Assembly (NCBI RefSeq): GCF_003464085.1
Contig: NZ_QSDR01000010.1
Location: forward strand, 66,350-130,349
From: Clostridium sp. AM58-1XD
GTDB lineage: Bacteria > Bacillota > Clostridia > Lachnospirales > Lachnospiraceae
Direction: 5' to 3'
DNA length: 64,000 bases
The notes beneath the pieces were generated by a model that ran no database searches, was not told the origin of the DNA, and was given only the letters and a program-made list of their open reading frames with translations. A program made the translations under genes and the position numbers. Positions 52,438 through 63,400 of this stretch are shown in pieces; position 1 is the first letter of the stretch; each line of letters opens with the position of its first letter.

Positions 52438-53649
52438 TTATTCGTACCGCAGTGCATCGATCGGGTCCGCCTTAGCCGCCTTGGAAGCCGGATACAGTCC
52501 AAAAAAGATTCCGACCACAGCAGAAAATGTCACTGCTACGATAATAACACTTGGTTTGATTACGACCGCCATGCCGAGGACAGCTCCTCCTGCAGATACA
52601 AGTCCGACTCCGATCAATATTCCAATGATACCGCCGCAGGCGGAAAGAATCGCCGACTCCGTCAAAAACTGGATCAGTACATCCCGCGTTCTTGCCCCAA
52701 GAGCCTTTCTGATACCAATTTCTCTCGTTCTCTCCGTAACAGACACAAGCATAATATTCATAATTCCAATGCCTCCAACCAGAAGAGAAATCGCTGCAAT
52801 ACCGCCTACCGCAATGGAAAGGCCTCCCATCATCGTATCGACACTGGTCATTTCTTCCATGGCCGTATACATATACATGTCTTCCGGTTCTCTCCCATGC
52901 ATTTTGGCCACGTATGCTTTAAACTGGGTGAAAAATTCATCCAGATTCACATCGTCCTCTGCATATACATGAAGGTTGTAAAAGTAATCGTTCGGCCATG
53001 TAAGAATGGTATATGGAATAAATGCAGCGCCCTTATCTGAGGTTTTTCCCATCATCAGCGCCTGAAATGCATTGAGGTTTTTTCTGTAGACACCTACAAC
53101 GGTATAGTCTTCTGTAGAACCGTAAATCGTGGTGCGGAAGGTCTTTCCCACTGCATTTTCTACACCGAACAGCATCATAGCACTGTCCGTGTCCATCACC
53201 ACATTTTTTTTCCGTCCTAAAATATCACCTTCATTCAAATATCGTCCGTATACAATATTAACAGGCTGCACATTCTGATAGTCGTAATCAATTCCCTGAA
53301 AATCAAAACTTACCTTTGTACGCTTATATGAGGCCTCGTTACTTGTAAATGCATTGCTGTCAATATATGCGATCTCATCGGAAAAAGCCTGTCTTGCCCG
53401 CTCCATCTCATCCAATGTAAAATAGTCGCTCTGCCTCACGTCGTCCACCCAGTATCCGATGGAAATATACGCCTGTGTAATTCCCACATCCTTATATAGA
53501 TCTGCAAACAGGCTTCTCATCGTGTCGCCGATGGATACGATGGAAATTACGGAACCTATACCTATGATGATTCCAAGCATGGTAAGAACAGACCGCATTT
53601 TATTGGCCCGGATCGCCGCAAAAGCCATCATCATATTTTCAATCAGCAT
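52438..53649 (-). CDS. MacB-type ABC transporter permease (second system)
   Basis: 403 residues, MacB architecture: N-terminal helix in MMAFAAIRANKMRSVLTMLGIIIGIGSVI, large outer domain, three C-terminal helices with SVTERTREIGIRKALGART and DPIDALRYE at the end. Paralogous to the gene at 33.1 kb. ATG 53649 follows AGGAGGAG. Overlaps the ATPase gene by 11 bases. Confidence 0.92.
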   Translation of the reverse strand: MLIENMMMAFAAIRANKMRSVLTMLGIIIGIGSVISIVSIGDTMRSLFADLYKDVGITQAYISIGYWVDDVRQSDYFTLDEMERARQAFSDEIAYIDSNAFTSNEASYKRTKVSFDFQGIDYDYQNVQPVNIVYGRYLNEGDILGRKKNVVMDTDSAMMLFGVENAVGKTFRTTIYGSTEDYTVVGVYRKNLNAFQALMMGKTSDKGAAFIPYTILTWPNDYFYNLHVYAEDDVNLDEFFTQFKAYVAKMHGREPEDMYMYTAMEEMTSVDTMMGGLSIAVGGIAAISLLVGGIGIMNIMLVSVTERTREIGIRKALGARTRDVLIQFLTESAILSACGGIIGILIGVGLVSAGGAVLGMAVVIKPSVIIVAVTFSAVVGIFFGLYPASKAAKADPIDALRYE

Positions 53650-54430
53650 GGTCTGTCTCCTCCTTAGGCTGGTGATCATTCATTTTATCGCTCAAAATTT
53701 TTCCGTCTCCAAAGCGGATGATCCTGTCGGCGAAGGCAGCGATATCTTCTTCATGCGTTACCACTACGACCGTCGCCCCTTCTCTGTGAAGCTGTTCAAA
53801 TAGCTCCATAATTTCAATTGAAGAAGCAGTATCCAGGTTTCCTGTAGGCTCATCTGCCAGTATCAGCGGCGGTTCATTCGCCAGAGCCCTGGCAATGGCA
53901 ACTCTCTGGCGCTGGCCTCCGGACAGCTCATTTGGCATATGATCTTTTCTCTCCCCCAGTCCGACGCGTTCCAGAAGTTCCTGGGCTCTTTCGATTCTCT
54001 TTGACTTATTTAAGCGGGCATATGTCATTGGAAGTTCTACATTTTTTAACGCAGAGGTTCTGGATATCAGATTAAAGGACTGAAACACAAATCCGATCTT
54101 TTTATTTCTTATTTCCGATAGCTGGTCCGGCGTCAAATTTGCCGTATCCTGTCCGTCCAGGTAGTAATGGCCCATCGTCGGCCGGTCCAGACAGCCCAGA
54201 ATATTCATCAAAGTCGATTTTCCGGAACCGGAATGTCCCATAATCGCCACAAATTCGCCTCGTTCTATCGTAAGGTTTATTTTCTTTAATCCTAGAACGC
54301 GAATAGCTCCCGTATCATAAACCTTGACTAGATTTTCCAGCTGAAGGAGCGGACCGTCCCATACAGGATTTTCGCTTTTCTTCTTCCTTCCAAATGCCAG
54401 ACGGCCTTTCATATCCTTAATTTTTATCAT
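53639..54430 (-). CDS. MacB-type ABC transporter ATPase (second system)
   Basis: 263 residues: Walker [11 protein letters not shown]-loop FVFQSFN, signature LSGGQRQR, Walker [14 protein letters not shown]-loop VVVTHE. The N-terminal 25 residues ([20 protein letters not shown]) are a basic extension. Ribosome site AGGAGG, eight bases after the MacA stop. Confidence 0.93.
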
Positions 54431-54438
54431 ACGGCCTC

Positions 54439-55818
54439 CTACTTCTGCGGAAGAATTGTCACTGCCATTCCATCCGTGATCTGAGGACCTGCATTGGTGA
54501 TCACCTGCATTCCCTCGGTCAGTTCAGCACCCTCAGCCGGAATTACTTCTACGTTGACGTCCCCGTCCACTCCTAAGGTGACCGGTATCAGTCTCGCATT
54601 CCCGTTCTCAACCACGCCTATGCTGGCAGTTGTCCCGTCGTCGATCAGAGCTGTTACCGGCACGACAAAGGCATCCTGGGATTCACGGATCAGAATTTCC
54701 GCCTTTGCCGTAATTCCTGCAATCAGCTTTATGTCTTTCCCATCGATTCTGATTGTAATTGGAATTACCCGCTCTGTTGATCCTCCGCCTTTTTCTTCTC
54801 CTGTCGGGGATATCTTGATTACTTCTCCTTCTACGGTTTTACCATTTAAAATATCCGCACTGATCACGGCTTTCTGACCTACCTGTACCTTTCCGATCGA
54901 GTATTCGCTGACCTTAATTTCCATCTCCAGCTGATCCAGATTCTCGATACTGAAAATAGGTTTGTCATCTTCTACTTTATCGGCAAACTGTCCGACCTTT
55001 GAGTTGACCCTGACTACCGTTCCGTCTATAGTGCTTTTAATTTCTGCATTTTCCAGCTCTTCCTTCTTCTTTTCCAGTTCATAAGCCGCATTTTCAATCT
55101 GAAGTTCGTAGGACGGGTCGGCAGCGCCGCGGCCGTTTACGACCGTATACCCTTCCATCAGACGCTTTGCATCCTTTAATGCATTCGCAGCCTGTTCCAT
55201 TTCCACCTGAGTGATTCCTCCGCTGGCAAATAGCATGCTGCTTCTGTTATAATCCGCCTGCGCTTTCTGAAAGTCCTGTACTGCCTTTTCATAGCCCAAG
55301 GCTTCGCTTTTATCTTTTTCCCGTTTATTAACAACGGCCAGGTCATATGCATTCTGTGCAATCTCCACTTCACGTTTCAGATCGGTGTTGTCAACTACTG
55401 CCAGAATATCTCCCTTTTTCACCGTATCTCCCTCTTTTACATTCATAGCCGTAATCTCAGCATGAATATTCGAAACGACATCGACGCTGTCTGTTCCCGA
55501 AACAGGACCGTTGACTGTCAGCTTCTCCTGGATCGGCTGCCTGGCCAGATCCATAACGGTAACTACAGGACCTGTGTCTTTTTTACTCTGCCCACCGCAT
55601 TTTGACAGCAAAAACAGAGCACATGCAAGGATAATCAAGATTGTGACTACTTTTCGCCTGCGGCTGAAGCCTTTCCATTTTTCTCTAAAAGGAGTTCCGG
55701 ATCTCTTCTTTTTTCTCTTTTTCTTACCTCCGTCCTCCTCGTTATCACTTTCCATTATTTCCTGAATCTTCTCATCAATCTTTTCAGATTCAGTCTTTTC
55801 CAATCTCTCCTCGTTCAT
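54439..55818 (-). CDS. MacA/HlyD-like membrane fusion protein (second system)
   Basis: 459 residues, intact. A cytoplasmic acidic-then-basic N-terminus (about 1-50; KKKRKKKRSG), one membrane helix (about 57-75), lipoyl halves (EITAMNVKEGDTVKKGDILAVVDN; STIDGTVVRVNSKVGQFADKVEDDKPIFSI) around a coiled coil, then beta-barrel domains with FVVPVTALIDD. First gene of the exporter operon, directly under the GntR-type operator. Ribosome site GGAGG. Confidence 0.92.
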   Translation of the reverse strand: MNEERLEKTESEKIDEKIQEIMESDNEEDGGKKKRKKKRSGTPFREKWKGFSRRRKVVTILIILACALFLLSKCGGQSKKDTGPVVTVMDLARQPIQEKLTVNGPVSGTDSVDVVSNIHAEITAMNVKEGDTVKKGDILAVVDNTDLKREVEIAQNAYDLAVVNKREKDKSEALGYEKAVQDFQKAQADYNRSSMLFASGGITQVEMEQAANALKDAKRLMEGYTVVNGRGAADPSYELQIENAAYELEKKKEELENAEIKSTIDGTVVRVNSKVGQFADKVEDDKPIFSIENLDQLEMEIKVSEYSIGKVQVGQKAVISADILNGKTVEGEVIKISPTGEEKGGGSTERVIPITIRIDGKDIKLIAGITAKAEILIRESQDAFVVPVTALIDDGTTASIGVVENGNARLIPVTLGVDGDVNVEVIPAEGAELTEGMQVITNAGPQITDGMAVTILPQK

Positions 55819-56317: not shown

Positions 56318-56420
56318 TTATTACACAGGATGGAATTTACGATTCCGTATCCGCTTTTTATATGCTGCCATGCAGCTGATTACGTATGAATATATAAGAC
56401 AAAAAAGGAGGACAATTATT

Positions 56421-56843
56421 ATGCGTGCAGTATTTGATGATTCCTTATTGACGGGAAATAAAATGATTGATGCACAGCACAAAGAGCTGATCGATAAGAT
56501 CAACAGCCTGCTGATAAGCTGTGAGAATAAAAATGACAAGCAGGGCGCTGTAAACATGCTGAATTACCTTGCTGACTATGTAGACTTCCACTTTGCTGAG
56601 GAGGAACAGCTACAGAAAGAAATGGAGTATCCGGGTATTCGCGAACACAAGATAAAACACAGGGAACTCCGCCTTGTTGTGGAAGACCTTCATGCCATGC
56701 TGGAGGAAGAAGAAGGTCCTTCTGAGCGCTTTGTGGAACAGGTTCAAAAGAATGTCGTCGATTGGCTTTACTACCATATCAAAACCTTTGACCGTTCTGT
56801 TGCCGAATATAAATTCTTGAAAGATAATACAGAAAGGATCTGA
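56421..56843 (+). CDS. Bacteriohemerythrin
   Basis: 140 residues, a four-helix diiron oxygen-binding protein. Ligand motifs are in the expected order: DAQHKELI (His), DFHFAEEE (His/Glu), REHKIKHRELR (His pair) and WLYYHIKTFDRSVAEY (His, Asp). Binds oxygen or acts as an oxygen sensor/scavenger in anaerobes. Ribosome site AAGGAGG. Followed 31 bases later by the NUDIX gene, likely co-transcribed. Confidence 0.93.
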   Translation: MRAVFDDSLLTGNKMIDAQHKELIDKINSLLISCENKNDKQGAVNMLNYLADYVDFHFAEEEQLQKEMEYPGIREHKIKHRELRLVVEDLHAMLEEEEGPSERFVEQVQKNVVDWLYYHIKTFDRSVAEYKFLKDNTERI

Positions 56844-56873: not shown

Positions 56874-57479
56874 ATGATATCTGATTCATATGTTTTTATA
56901 AACAGAGAGGAATTTCGTTTTTCTTCCGTTATAATACCGATCATAGAGACCGATCATATTCAACAGATTCTTTTTGAAGTGCGTGAAAGCCATCTCCCTC
57001 AGCCTGGAGAAATCTGCTTTCCCGGAGGACGCATAGAAGCCGGTGAGTCCCCCAGGAAAGCGGCTGTTCGAGAGACCATGGAGGAACTTATGATCCGGAG
57101 GGAACAGATCAACGACATTTGTCCTCTCGGGCTTTTGTATACTCCCTCTGGTATGGTCATTCATGCCTTCACGGCAACGCTTTCCAATTACGAATGGACA
57201 TTTTCAAAAAACGAGGTGGCGGAAGTATTCTCCGTTCCTCTCGATTTTCTGATTCATACAGTCCCGGAAGTCTATTCTGCAGATATCACTGTACGGCCGG
57301 ATCCGGATTTCCCATTTGATCGCATTCCAGGAGGGAATGAATATTCCTGGCGGACGGGCAAGTATCCGATCTACTTTTATCAGTATAAAAACAGGACAAT
57401 ATGGGGGATGACAGCGAAAATATTAAGAGAATACATGATACGGCGAAAAGACAGCGAACCGCATTCTAAATATAGCTGA
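56874..57479 (+). CDS. NUDIX hydrolase, CoA-pyrophosphatase-like
   Basis: 201 residues with the NUDIX box in FPGGRIEAGESPRKAAVRETMEEL; the usual Gly near the box's end is Leu/Met. Upstream ESHLPQPGEICFPGG is the extra motif of the CoA-diphosphatase (YeaB/NUDT7) group. Probably cleaves CoA or related nucleotides. Ribosome site AGGAAA. Its stop codon is inside a strong terminator hairpin. Confidence 0.85.
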   Translation: MISDSYVFINREEFRFSSVIIPIIETDHIQQILFEVRESHLPQPGEICFPGGRIEAGESPRKAAVRETMEELMIRREQINDICPLGLLYTPSGMVIHAFTATLSNYEWTFSKNEVAEVFSVPLDFLIHTVPEVYSADITVRPDPDFPFDRIPGGNEYSWRTGKYPIYFYQYKNRTIWGMTAKILREYMIRRKDSEPHSKYS

Positions 57480-57535
57480 ACGAAGACGAGGTGCTGCGAT
57501 TTTTTCCATTCTGCAGCACCTCGTCTTCGTTCTTC
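57478..57535. terminator. Bidirectional terminator with 20-bp perfect stem
   Basis: GAACGAAGACGAGGTGCTGC (57478-57497) and GCAGCACCTCGTCTTCGTTC (57513-57532), loop of 15 bases with T6. Between convergent genes. The GGTGCTGC core also appears in the outer stems of the dispersed hairpin elements. Confidence 0.9.
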
Positions 57536-57550
57536 GTTCTCTTATTTTTC

Positions 57551-60255
57551 TTATTTCTGCCTTTTCTTATTTCTGCCTTCTGTTTCTGTATGGTGTTCTT
57601 CTTTCAATGCCTCGACAATATTTTTGTCTGCATGCCTGAGCAGATAATTGCGTCCCGGTTTTGGAAGCCTTTCCCGTTCCTCTGCAAGCTGTCCGTTAAT
57701 CCGCTCAATCTCTTCTTTAAGATCCGTTGCCGAAAGCAGCATACAGCCCTGTCCCCGTATAATCAACTGTTCCAATCCGTCTGATGTTGCCACAGTTACG
57801 TGATATTTCTTTCCCATTTCATGCGCCAGCTTTTCAATATACTGGTCCGCCGTCTCTGCTTCTTTCGTGTATACAACATGGATATTGTGATAGTCCAGTG
57901 CCTCTCCAGTATTTCCGGTTACCTTATAGGCATCGAAAACAACGATGAGCGTGCATTTTTTATACCCCTGGTAGTTGCAGAGAATATCCATCAATTTATG
58001 CCTTGCCCCATCAATGGTTGCCTTCGCCAGTTCCCGCAGCTCTTCCCATGCAAAAATAATGTTATAGCCGTCTACAAGGAGATACTCTTCCACTTTTTCC
58101 TGCGGTCCTGCACTTCTCTGTGCTCCGTAAGTAACAGTCCTTGGACCGTTCTGCGATGTCGTTTTCCGCTTGCTCTCCCCGTAAGTGCGGATAAAAATCT
58201 CCTCCAGTTCTTTATCATCAATCCCTGATGAGGCATACGCAGGAGGCAGCGCTGCCGCGGGCCTATTTTCCAATACGTTTATTTCACGTTCAAGGTATGT
58301 TCCCGCCTCTGAATTCACAGTCTTTTTCTGATCCAAAAGACAGCCTATATGCATGTGATTTTTCACTTCATTCCATGGAACGAGATAGCCGGCGCCATGA
58401 GAACAGAATACTGAGCCGGTCGGATAATCCAAGTCCGTTTCCGGATCATATCCGATAGACTCAATCACCTCCTGTTCATTATGGCACGGTTCATATCCTT
58501 CCACCGAACAGGTAAAGCGGCCTCTTCCCTTCGTATAAGAGACTATCTCTTTCTGATAATCACGCATGTTGATTACAGGCGCGCTTCCTTCCAGCACCGT
58601 CATTTCCCCCTCCGGCTGCGGCGGGTCAAACCGTCCCTGCATCCGTTCAATATCTGCCATAGCTCGTCCAACAGATTCTGAAGGAATTTCCAAGCGAAAT
58701 TTATAATACGGTTCCAACAGCCGACAGGACGTTCCATAAGTCCCTGGCGGACAGCCCGGTACGTAGCCTGGCGGAAGTCTCCGCCCTCCGTATGTTTGAT
58801 ATGGGCTCTCCCGGAAACCAGAGTTATCTTCATATCTGTAATTTCGGCTCCTGTTAAAACTCCCTTATGACGCCGCTCCTCCAAATGGGTCAGAACAAGG
58901 CGCTGCCAGTTTCGATCCAGCATATCTTCACTGCAGCGCGCTTCAAACTGCAGTCCGCTTCCCTGCTCTCCCGGTTCCAGAAGAAGATGTACCTCAGCAT
59001 AATGACGCAGTGGTTCAAAGTGGCCGACTCCCTCTACCGGTTCCAGAATCGTTTCTTTATACACGATATTTCCAGTTCCAAACTCTACGGATACCCCAAA
59101 CCGCTCCTGGACCAGACTTTTCAAAATTTCTATCTGAACTTCACCCATTACCTGAGCCTGTATCTCTCCGAGAGTCTCATTCCAGACGATATGCAGCTGC
59201 GGTTCTTCTTCCTCCAACTGCCTTAAATTTTTCAACATGACCGAAACATCATATCCCGCAGGCAGGATCACCTGATACGTCAAAACAGGCTCGAGAACAG
59301 GTAACTCCGATTCCTCTTCCATTCCGATTCCCTGCCCTGCACAGGTAGTAAGAGGCCCAGTTACTGCACAGACGGTTCCTGCCTCCGCTTCGCTGACCGC
59401 CTCAAATTTGGCTCCGGAATAAATCCTGATCTGGTTTACCTTTTCTTCCTCACGGCCCGCCAGCATATCTCTCACTCTCAACGTTCCGCCAGTGATCTTT
59501 AAATGAGTCATGCGGCTGCCCTGTTCATCTCTGGAAATTTTAAATACCTTTGCGCCAAAACGATTCGAATAATCCGGGCATTCCGTGTAGTTCTCCATTC
59601 CTGCCAGAAATCCCTCCACTCCCTGGAGCTTCAATGCCGAACCAAAGTAGCAGGGGAATACGTTCCGTTTTCTTATTAGTTTTCTGATATCAGGAACTTC
59701 CACCGTACCACTTTCCAGGTAGGATTCCAGAGTATGATCTTCGCAAACAGCTATATTTTCCATAAGCTCTTCCTGATCAGCTCCAAAATCCACACAGTTT
59801 CCATCCAGGCGGCTTTTTACATCTTCCAATAAAGCGCCTTTATCCGTACCGTTCTGATCCATTTTATTGATGAACAGAAAGACAGGGATTCTGTATTTTT
59901 TCAGCAGGCGCCATAGCGTCTCTGTATGTCCCTGTACGCCATCCGCACCGCTGATTACAAGTATGGCATAATCCAGAATCTGGAGTGTCCGCTCCATTTC
60001 AGCTGAAAAATCCACATGGCCCGGTGTGTCCATCAGCGTGACAGACGTATCCCCAAGGGTAAAAACAGCCTGCTTGGAAAATATAGTGATTCCCCGGGCG
60101 CGTTCCAGTTCATACGTATCCAGGAACGCATCCCTGTTATCCACTCGTCCCAGCTTCCGGATGCTTCCAGTCAGATACAGAATACTTTCTGAAAGCGTTG
60201 TCTTTCCTGCATCTACATGGGCTAATATTCCAATTACTAATTTTTTCATCTTCAT
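57551..60255 (-). CDS. TetM/EF-G-like translation GTPase fused to a Rae1/YacP-like NYN nuclease domain (frameshifted)
   Basis: About 901 residues. The first 500 or so form an EF-G/TetM-type GTPase: AHVDAGKTT (G1), GITIF (G2), DTPGHVDF (G3), NKMD (G4), GSAL (G5), then EF-G domains 2-4 (EVQIEILKSLVQERFGVSV; YKETILEPVEGVGHFEPL). The frame breaks near 58727: RPVGCWNRI against CRLLEPYYKFRLEIPSESVGRAMADIE; one added C joins them. The GTPase part ends with SYTKGRGRFTCSVEGYEP; after a low-complexity linker comes a NYN (PIN-like) domain (about 720-865): YLLVDGYNIIFAW, LIVVFDAYK, DQYIEKLAHE, VATSDGLEQL. Rae1/YacP NYN proteins cut mRNA in the ribosomal A site. Confidence 0.88.
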
Positions 60256-61911: not shown

Positions 61912-62002
61912 TCTTTATTTTGGATATTTGTTAAACTTCAGGTCTTGCTCCTGGTTCGTCTCAGTTTAATTTGTCTGTGTCTGATTGCAATATACAAACC
62001 GG

Positions 62003-62031
62003 TTGATAAAATATGCCGTCCGTCGTATACT
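62003..62031 (+). promoter_or_regulatory. Promoter of the radical SAM gene
   Basis: TTGATA (62003-62008), 17 bases, TATACT (62026-62031), 26 bases upstream of the start codon. Confidence 0.75.
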
Positions 62032-62056
62032 GAACCTGATAAAGGAGCGACTACAT

Positions 62057-63400
62057 ATGATAATTAAGCTGATACAGCCCAAAATGACACTGCGCCCTAT
62101 GGATACCGGTCTGAAAATCCGCATGTCTCCTCCTCTGGGCCTCCTGACAATCGCAGCCATGTTTGAGCACGACCATACAATCATCATCGAAAATGAAAAT
62201 GTGGAGAAGATCGACTATGAGAGCCCTGTCGATCTTGTAGGTATCTCCATTACCGTGGATATGCTGGACCGGGCTATTTTGATTGCCGAAAAATTCCGCA
62301 AACGCAATATCCCGGTCGTTGCCGGCGGTATTCACGTTACTGCCGTTCCTGAAGATGTATCCCCATTCTTTGATGCAGTCAGCGTAGGACTTGCTGAGAA
62401 AACATGGCCTTCCATTATAGCTGATATGCAAAAAGGTACTCTTAAAAAGGTATACCGCTGCGGCGATCCCATCAGGTCGAAGGATATCGTTCCGCCGGCT
62501 TACCATTTACTTGATAAACGAAAATACCTCTATACCAATATTATCAGTACCAGCAGAGGCTGCCCTTTTCAGTGTGACTTCTGTTACAACAGCTGCGAAG
62601 CCTGTAAAGATGTATATGTCAATCGTCCTGTCGCCCATGTGCTTGAAGACATCAAGGCTATCGGCCGCCGCCATATCATGTTTATCGACGACAATTTAAT
62701 CGGAAATCCTCAGTGGACCCTGGAGCTTGTCAAAGCCCTAAAGCCCCTGCATATCAAATGGAACGCCGCCGTATCCGCAAATATTGTGCAAATGCCAAAG
62801 CTTCTGGATGAAATGCGTGAGTCTGGCTGTCAAAGTCTGTTTATCGGATTTGAAAGCATAAATGACAGCTCTCTGACCGGAGTACACAAGGTTCAGAATC
62901 ACGTGAACCAGTTTGACCAGCTGGTTCACGAGCTCCACCGCAGGGGTATTATGATCAATGCCAGTTTCGTTTTCGGCCTTGACAGCGACGATCCGCAAAC
63001 CTTTCAGAATACGCTCCAGTGGATCATTTCCCACAAGATTGAAACTGTCACATCCCATATTCTGACTCCGTATCCAGGTACGGCTCTGTATGAACGTATG
63101 GCTTCTGACGGCCGAATTACTACCTTCGATTACTCGCTTTACAATACGGCCAATGTTGTTTTCTCTCCTGCAAATATGACGCCGGAGGAACTGTTTCTGG
63201 GATATAAGAAAATTTATAAGGACATCTATTCCTGGAAAAACATATTCCGCCGTATGCCGAGGGCCAAATCTCAATGGCTCCCATACCTGATGTTCAATAT
63301 TTTCTACCGTAAATACGGCCGATTCACGGACTGGCTCTGCCGCCATATCACATATGAGCGGATTGGGCGGATATCAGAAAAGGTATCTTACTGGATATAA
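62057..63400 (+). CDS. B12-binding-domain radical SAM protein
   Basis: 447 residues. N-terminal cobalamin-binding-like Rossmann domain (SPPLGLLTIAAMF, VDLVGISITVDMLDRAI, VVAGGIHVTAVPED), then a radical SAM core with the iron-sulfur motif CPFQCDFC (CxxxCxxC, about 180-190) and an Elp3/MiaB-like half (FGLDSDDPQTFQNTLQW, LTPYPGTALYERM). BchE/phosphonate-methylase-like group; substrate unknown. ATG 62057 follows AAAGGAG. Monocistronic, ending in a strong terminator. Confidence 0.92.
   Translation: MIIKLIQPKMTLRPMDTGLKIRMSPPLGLLTIAAMFEHDHTIIIENENVEKIDYESPVDLVGISITVDMLDRAILIAEKFRKRNIPVVAGGIHVTAVPEDVSPFFDAVSVGLAEKTWPSIIADMQKGTLKKVYRCGDPIRSKDIVPPAYHLLDKRKYLYTNIISTSRGCPFQCDFCYNSCEACKDVYVNRPVAHVLEDIKAIGRRHIMFIDDNLIGNPQWTLELVKALKPLHIKWNAAVSANIVQMPKLLDEMRESGCQSLFIGFESINDSSLTGVHKVQNHVNQFDQLVHELHRRGIMINASFVFGLDSDDPQTFQNTLQWIISHKIETVTSHILTPYPGTALYERMASDGRITTFDYSLYNTANVVFSPANMTPEELFLGYKKIYKDIYSWKNIFRRMPRAKSQWLPYLMFNIFYRKYGRFTDWLCRHITYERIGRISEKVSYWI

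What the first reader, a model, noticed from the sequence alone, without database searches (positions are those of the whole stretch)
57551..60255. Ribosome-protection-type GTPase fused to an A-site-ribonuclease-type NYN domain
Seen: EF-G/TetM G1-G5 motifs and domains 2-4, followed on the same strand by a NYN domain with LLVDGYN and acidic residues. Restoring one C joins both frames into about 901 residues. Established: Rae1/YacP NYN proteins cleave mRNA in the ribosomal A site; TetM-type GTPases bind that same site. Inference: one chain could deliver a nuclease to stalled ribosomes and then act as GTPase to release them, a rescue or quality-control factor rather than tetracycline resistance.
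Basis: partly seen in the sequence, partly recalled or inferred. Interest (0 to 1): 0.82.

Follow-up and report, generated by a model that had tools for sequence, protein, structure and literature searches.

The report
Ribosome GTPase carrying an mRNA cutter
Many gut clostridia carry a ribosome-type GTPase joined to an enzyme that probably cuts messenger RNA inside stalled ribosomes; in their genomes it seems to take the place of the free-standing cutter, and the copy in this window is broken in two reading frames.

Summary
On the - strand there are two overlapping frames: a GTPase with EF-G/TetM-type domains G to IV (58600-60255), then domain V plus a YacP/Rae1-type NYN nuclease (57551-58717). 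In this window the gene is broken near 58.7 kb. Intact one-chain relatives are common: 116 of the 120 listed homologue clusters carry both parts. The architecture is in print (Atkinson 2015: ten Clostridiales "Tet" proteins with a YacP-like NYN domain), so the fusion itself is not new.

Added here: (1) the GTPase forms its own clade apart from tetracycline-protection proteins and EF-G, with domain IV tip HxKHTxGGDFR (127 of 128 fused, 22 of 22 unfused) where seven over-cut-off protection proteins have SPxSTP; (2) four NYN aspartates are kept in 128 of 128 fused chains; (3) of 391 sampled genomes of the class, 128 have the fusion, 108 a free YacP, one both (35 expected if independent); (4) free YacP lies beside rlmB in 26 of 31 genomes, the fusion in 0 of 30, all keeping rlmB.

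Best reading: a Rae1-type A-site endonuclease on its own ribosome-binding GTPase, replacing free Rae1; not tetracycline resistance. No biochemistry exists.

The parts
58600..60255 (-). First piece of the broken gene: 551-aa ORF with EF-G/TetM-like domains G, II, III, IV; its last ~40 residues have no counterpart in relatives
59587..60240 (-). GTPase domain (PF00009)
   Evidence: E 2e-49; G motifs and switch-II His conserved in relatives
59344..59556 (-). EF-G domain II (PF22042)
59077..59292 (-). EF-G domain III (PF14492)
58735..59070 (-). EF-G domain IV (PF03764)
58771..58803 (-). Domain IV tip loop HIKHTEGGDFR, the subfamily signature; over-cut-off tetracycline-protection proteins have SPxSTP here
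57551..58717 (-). Second piece of the broken gene: 388-aa ORF with domain V, linker and NYN nuclease
58475..58717 (-). EF-G domain V (PF00679)
58373..58417 (-). Extension after domain V (GSVFCSHGAGYLVPW), seen in the fused and unfused members shown, not in the protection proteins and EF-G shown
58166..58219 (-). Conserved segment in the otherwise variable linker (DDKELEEIFIRTYGESKR); not aligned in unfused members
   Evidence: linker residues 660-731 of a relative's model mostly below pLDDT 50
57599..58081 (-). YacP/Rae1-type NYN nuclease domain (PF05991); aspartates 216, 262, 291, 313 of the piece match the four conserved ones
57478..57532 (.). Perfect 20-nt inverted repeat between the convergent ends of this gene and the Nudix gene; likely a shared terminator (inference)

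Best explanation
In intact relatives this is a Rae1-type, ribosome-dependent mRNA endonuclease built onto its own ribosome-binding translational GTPase. The EF-G-shaped half would bind the factor site of ribosomes with an empty or blocked A site and probe it with a domain IV tip unlike those of EF-G or TetM. It would then hydrolyse GTP and leave the site, and the NYN domain, held by a flexible linker of about 90 residues, would enter the A site and cut the mRNA there. Since domain IV and Rae1 would use the same site, they should act one after the other. In clostridia with the fusion it takes the place of free-standing Rae1. Shown here by sequence: domains, conserved active sites, separate clade, near mutual exclusion with free YacP, loss of the rlmB-yacP neighbourhood. 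Known for B. subtilis Rae1: A-site endonuclease. Inferred: ribosome binding, order of events, target mRNAs. In this window the gene is broken, so this copy may not work.
For: 116 of the 120 listed homologue clusters are single chains with NYN (7980 scored, 120 listed). NYN matches B. subtilis YacP structures 5MQ8/5MQ9 at E about 1e-24. All four aspartates (D742, D788, D817, D839 of P0002) are kept in 128 of 128 fused and 40 of 40 free NYN rows. The tested GTPase-motif positions are kept in 126 or more of 128 fused rows, the switch-II His in 127. Of 391 genomes, 248 have YacP over cut-off: 128 fused (one of these also free), 108 free, 13 of intermediate length; 35 with both expected under independence, 1 seen, Fisher p 3e-21, kinship not controlled. 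Free YacP lies within 300 bp of rlmB in 26 of 31 genomes, the fusion in 0 of 30, with an rlmB match in all 61. In B. subtilis yacO (rlmB) and rae1 are adjacent and co-transcribed, and Rae1 acts as an A-site endoribonuclease (PMC6613710, passages). The model of intact P0002 has pLDDT 86 and aligns with EF-G, EF-2 and TetM structures over residues 1 to 605-628.
Against: No experiment. Rae1 is known from B. subtilis, which to my recollection has no such GTPase (not tested here). 7 of the 22 genomes with an unfused GTPase relative have no YacP match, so the two activities are not strictly tied. Three actinobacterial members inside the fused GTPase clade lack the NYN, so the GTPase can apparently act without it. 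One genome has both the fusion and free YacP. The mutual exclusion may be mostly one old event inherited by a clade. In one of the 30 fused genomes (G237) the fusion is only 4.7 kb from rlmB. The placing of NYN relative to the GTPase is not predicted (low-confidence linker, pTM 0.67).
Confidence: 0.6

Rival explanations
1. A tetracycline (or other A-site drug) ribosome-protection protein in which the NYN RNase adds a new way of resistance, as Atkinson suggested in 2015.
For: Nearest solved relatives by sequence are TetO and TetM (E 6e-76 and 6e-75); some sources name members as tetracycline resistance proteins (P0043, P0110); suggested in PMC4342817 (passages).
Against: Score 362 bits for the first piece against the curated 775-bit cut-off; in the listed rows no fused chain passes it (highest 451.8 bits). 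Separate clade, 100/100. Tip HxKHT, not SPxSTP, in 128 of 128 fused rows. The fusion is in 128 of 391 genomes, and 7 of the 23 genomes with a protection protein over cut-off also carry the fusion.
Confidence: 0.12
2. The NYN part cuts tRNA or rRNA (maturation or damage control) rather than mRNA, with the GTPase as a subunit-assembly or quality-control factor.
For: NYN domains were proposed for rRNA/tRNA maturation (cited in PMC4342817); free YacP sits beside rlmB, an rRNA methylase gene.
Against: The one tested close relative met in these calls, Rae1, is described as an A-site endonuclease acting on mRNA (PMC6613710, PMC10100781; passages).
Confidence: 0.15
3. A convenience fusion: two independent ribosome factors (a trGTPase of unknown role and Rae1) sharing one chain, with no coupling of their steps.
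For: Unfused GTPases exist with and without YacP (15 and 7 of 22 genomes); three actinobacterial members have no NYN; free NYNs of the fused type occur in some Lachnospiraceae.
Against: The fusion is kept in 128 of 391 genomes, with both active sites conserved and a linker segment conserved in the fused rows.
Confidence: 0.13

Closest known systems
Clostridial Tet proteins with a YacP-like NYN domain (Atkinson 2015, PMC4342817)
   Same: Same architecture: EF-G/Tet-like GTPase with a YacP-like NYN domain
   Different: There classed as Tet, from ten species, as a possible resistance mechanism; here a separate clade with its own tip loop, standing in for free Rae1. The window copy is broken.
Rae1/YacP of Bacillus subtilis (PDB 5MQ8, 5MQ9)
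   Same: NYN domain, alignment E about 1e-24, the same four aspartates
   Different: Rae1 is a free protein (181 residues in the PDB chain) encoded beside rlmB; here the domain is C-terminal to a translational GTPase and away from rlmB
TetM/TetO ribosomal protection proteins
   Same: Five EF-G-like domains, translational GTPase motifs
   Different: Different domain IV tip (HxKHT, not SPxSTP), extra SVFC extension, below the family score cut-off, separate clade
EF-G
   Different: First piece 247 bits against cut-off 659; tip differs from the HDVDSSE-type tip of the nine EF-G rows
Unfused members of the same GTPase clade (for example in Neobacillus cucumis and Intestinibacter bartlettii)
   Same: 44-50% identity to P0002 over the GTPase half, same tip, same extension after domain V
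   Different: No linker segment or NYN; 15 of 22 such sampled genomes carry a free YacP

Membership tests
Tetracycline ribosomal protection proteins (TetM/TetO) | Score over the curated NF012153 cut-off (775 bits) | tested here: not met
   362.5 bits (first piece) and 52.7 (second piece); highest listed fused relative 451.8 bits
Tetracycline ribosomal protection proteins (TetM/TetO) | Domain IV tip loop of the SPxSTP type | tested here: not met
   window piece HIKHTEGGDFR; HxKHT in 128 of 128 fused rows; SPxSTP in 7 of 7 over-cut-off protection proteins, 4 further distant rows differ. That the tip loops meet the drug is stated in PMC4342817
Tetracycline ribosomal protection proteins (TetM/TetO) | Confers tetracycline resistance | not testable with these tools
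   needs a susceptibility test
Rae1/YacP endoribonucleases | NYN_YacP domain over Pfam cut-off | tested here: met
   175.6 bits against 24.6
Rae1/YacP endoribonucleases | Conserved acidic active-site residues | tested here: met
   four aspartates in 128 of 128 fused and 40 of 40 free NYN rows; present in the window piece
Rae1/YacP endoribonucleases | Gene next to rlmB | tested here: not met
   0 of 30 fused genomes against 26 of 31 with free YacP; the window gene's two neighbours are a thiolase and a Nudix gene
Rae1/YacP endoribonucleases | Ribosome-dependent cleavage in the A site | not testable with these tools
   needs biochemistry
EF-G | Score over TIGR00484 cut-off (659.4 bits) | tested here: not met
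   247.2 bits (first piece)
Fused Tet-like GTPase plus YacP-like NYN (Atkinson 2015) | Both domains in one uninterrupted chain | tested here: not met
   two frames in this window; met in 116 of 120 listed homologue clusters

The most novel reading that the evidence does not exclude
A GTP-driven ribosome nuclease: a separate clade of translational GTPases, neither EF-G nor tetracycline protection, whose cycle delivers a tethered Rae1 nuclease to the A site of paused ribosomes. It would have displaced free Rae1 across a large part of the gut Clostridia, making mRNA cleavage on the ribosome a GTPase-controlled step.
Probability: 0.45. Interest if true: 0.8.

Novelty: new variant of a known kind. 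Interest (0 to 1): 0.52.

Why it matters
Some of these genes are named tetracycline resistance proteins in databases (P0043, P0110), which may inflate counts of resistance genes in gut bacteria (inference). If the reading is right they are a ribosome quality-control or mRNA-decay factor in about a third of the sampled genomes (128 of 391). They would also tie together two things studied apart: GTPases that visit the A site, and A-site mRNA cleavage. The replacement pattern makes the link directly testable.

Tried and rejected
Programmed frameshift: rejected as a shared mechanism, because the four short entries among the 120 listed leave the family's sequence at four different places (about residues 506, 544, 630 and 498 of P0002, the first and last judged by eye).

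Conserved neighbourhood of the fused gene: none found beyond the gene itself. Across 15 fused and 24 unfused loci the next most widespread cluster reached 3 fused and 6 unfused loci.

Strict partnership of unfused GTPase and free YacP: 15 of 22 against 92 of 241 other non-fused genomes, odds ratio 3.5, p 0.011 without control for kinship. I treat this as weak. The 22 were picked by me from the listed rows (156 genomes match; eight had no listed row). Left out: G239 and G146 (frames at contig ends), G343 (fragment), G162 (36% identity, taken as outside the clade), and G356 and G067. In the last two the GTPase frame and the NYN frame lie close together on one contig as two frames, so they look like further broken fusions.

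Single origin of the fused NYN: with all 88 rows (13 of them repeats of other rows), holding the fused NYNs together was rejected (p-AU 0.0185). After I dropped two short free entries (P0190, P0197, possibly fragments, not proven) and two long-branch fused rows (L012, L013), removed the repeats, added some further free NYNs and thinned the rest to leave 61 rows, it was not (p-AU 0.40).

First structure model, from 20 rows: poor, pLDDT 55; replaced by one from 110 rows. The VIA list spans model residues 1-625 only, so it says nothing on the NYN.

Tally details: fused means an open frame of 780 aa or more, free 230 aa or less. G239 is counted as free but is more likely a fusion cut by contig ends. 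The 13 intermediate lengths were not examined one by one. One weak match (G263, E 7e-4) is below the cut-off and not counted. Second, weak matches in G151, G216 and G257 are below the cut-off too.

Not in print: searches listed no paper that I recognised as a functional test of such a fusion; I read passages of six papers only. The library holds open-licence papers only. Leroy 2017 and Condon 2018 on Rae1 were not readable and were seen only as references.

Full report
What is in the window. On the - strand, ORF 58600-60255 (551 aa) and the overlapping ORF 57551-58717 (388 aa) lie in two frames. Searched apart, the first has GTP_EFTU, EF-G_D2, EFG_III and EFG_IV; the second has EFG_C and NYN_YacP. 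Against the intact database relative P0002 the pieces align one after the other (81% and 69% identity), with the break at the domain IV/V border near 58.7 kb. No genome is held for the window, so a mutation and a sequence error cannot be told apart. Three other short entries among the 120 listed homologues end elsewhere, so one shared programmed frameshift is unlikely. Two of the surveyed genomes (G356, G067) also show the two halves in two frames on one contig.

The family. Of 7980 scored homologues 120 are listed; 116 are single chains of 880-965 aa with the NYN domain. Sources name them variously: translation factor GTPase family protein, NYN domain-containing protein, small GTP-binding protein, TetM/TetW/TetO/TetS family tetracycline resistance protein. 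The architecture is already in print: Atkinson 2015 (PMC4342817; passages read) reported that Tet proteins of ten Clostridiales species had gained a YacP-like NYN domain, and suggested a new resistance mechanism.

The GTPase is not a tetracycline-protection protein. The first piece scores 362 bits against the 775-bit cut-off of the curated family, and 247 against 659 for EF-G. In a 62-row tree the 19 fused chains and 22 unfused relatives form one clade (100/100), apart from protection proteins and EF-G. The domain IV tip reads HxKHTxGGDFR in 127 of 128 fused rows (the last has SQ for GG) and in 22 of 22 unfused rows. Seven over-cut-off protection proteins have SPxSTP[AS]DFR, four more distant rows of that group (L022, L162, L163, L165) have other tips, and the nine EF-G rows have tips of the HDVDSSE type (TetO). 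The fused and unfused members shown also share an extension after domain V (SVFC or SIFC), which is not seen in the protection-protein and EF-G rows shown.

The nuclease half looks active. NYN matches the solved B. subtilis YacP/Rae1 at E about 1e-24. The four aspartates are all kept in 128 of 128 fused and 40 of 40 free NYN rows. In another NYN enzyme conserved aspartates form the probable active site, and changing one abolished cleavage (PMC11346440, passages). The GTPase-motif positions tested are kept in at least 126 of 128 fused rows.

The fusion replaces free YacP. The tool drew 391 genomes of the class of G001, a Lachnospiraceae record and hence Clostridia; it names no groups and gives no completeness. 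248 have a YacP match over cut-off. By frame length 127 have a fused gene only, 107 a free one only, 1 both, and 13 intermediate lengths not examined one by one. If independent, 35 would have both. Kinship is not controlled, so much of this may be one old event inherited by a clade. Gene place agrees: free YacP lies within 300 bp of rlmB in 26 of 31 genomes (the other five: two on another contig, three 1.9 to 12.7 kb away), whereas the fusion does in 0 of 30 (nearest 4.7 kb, G237); all 61 have an rlmB match. The 31 and 30 were picked by me from the upper part of the list, G345 included with the free ones. In G345, the one genome with both, the free copy is the one beside rlmB. In B. subtilis, yacO (rlmB) and rae1 are adjacent and co-transcribed, and Rae1 acts as an A-site endonuclease (PMC6613710, passages; see also PMC10100781, passages).

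Evolution. In the NYN tree all fused NYNs fall in one clade (100/100) together with 13 free NYNs, 11 of them of the Lacrimispora/Enterocloster type. A single origin of the fused NYNs is rejected with all rows (p 0.0185) but not after I dropped four rows and changed the set of free ones (p 0.40). Of 22 genomes with an unfused GTPase, 15 have a free YacP and 7 have none, a weak enrichment (p 0.011, kinship not controlled).

Mechanism. Rae1 and the domain IV tip would both use the A site, so they should act in turn. Most likely the GTPase half docks on a ribosome with a free or blocked A site and leaves the site after GTP hydrolysis, and the tethered NYN then cuts the mRNA. The linker of about 90 residues is long enough for this (inference). 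I put 0.6 on the Rae1-type reading as a whole.

Verdict. The fusion is real in relatives and was reported in 2015. What is added here is that the GTPase is a separate clade with its own tip and that the fusion stands in for free Rae1. The window copy itself is broken. Eight literature searches listed no paper that I recognised as a functional test.

Noticed in passing
57478-57532: Perfect 20-nt inverted repeat between the convergent ends of the NYN frame and the Nudix gene, likely a two-way terminator.
   Followed up: partly
56370-56843 (+): Bacteriohemerythrin gene close to a Nudix (CoA pyrophosphatase-like) gene at 56874-57479.
   Followed up: no
52438-55818 (-): Three-gene MacA/MacB-like export set: HlyD-type adaptor, ABC ATPase, MacB/FtsX permease.
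   Followed up: no
61985-63400 (+): B12-binding radical SAM protein with a DUF4070 match.
   Followed up: no
L011, L014, L016: Bifidobacterium and Collinsella members fall inside the fused GTPase clade but have no NYN, suggesting transfer and loss.
   Followed up: partly
L161 with L118 (genome G258); L160 with L174 (genome G277): Two genomes pair an unfused GTPase with a free NYN of the fused type; these may show a stage before or after the fusion.
   Followed up: partly
L156, L157 (genome G137): Two unfused GTPase paralogues in one genome.
   Followed up: no
genomes G356 and G067: GTPase frame and NYN frame close together on one contig but in two frames, as in the window.
   Followed up: partly
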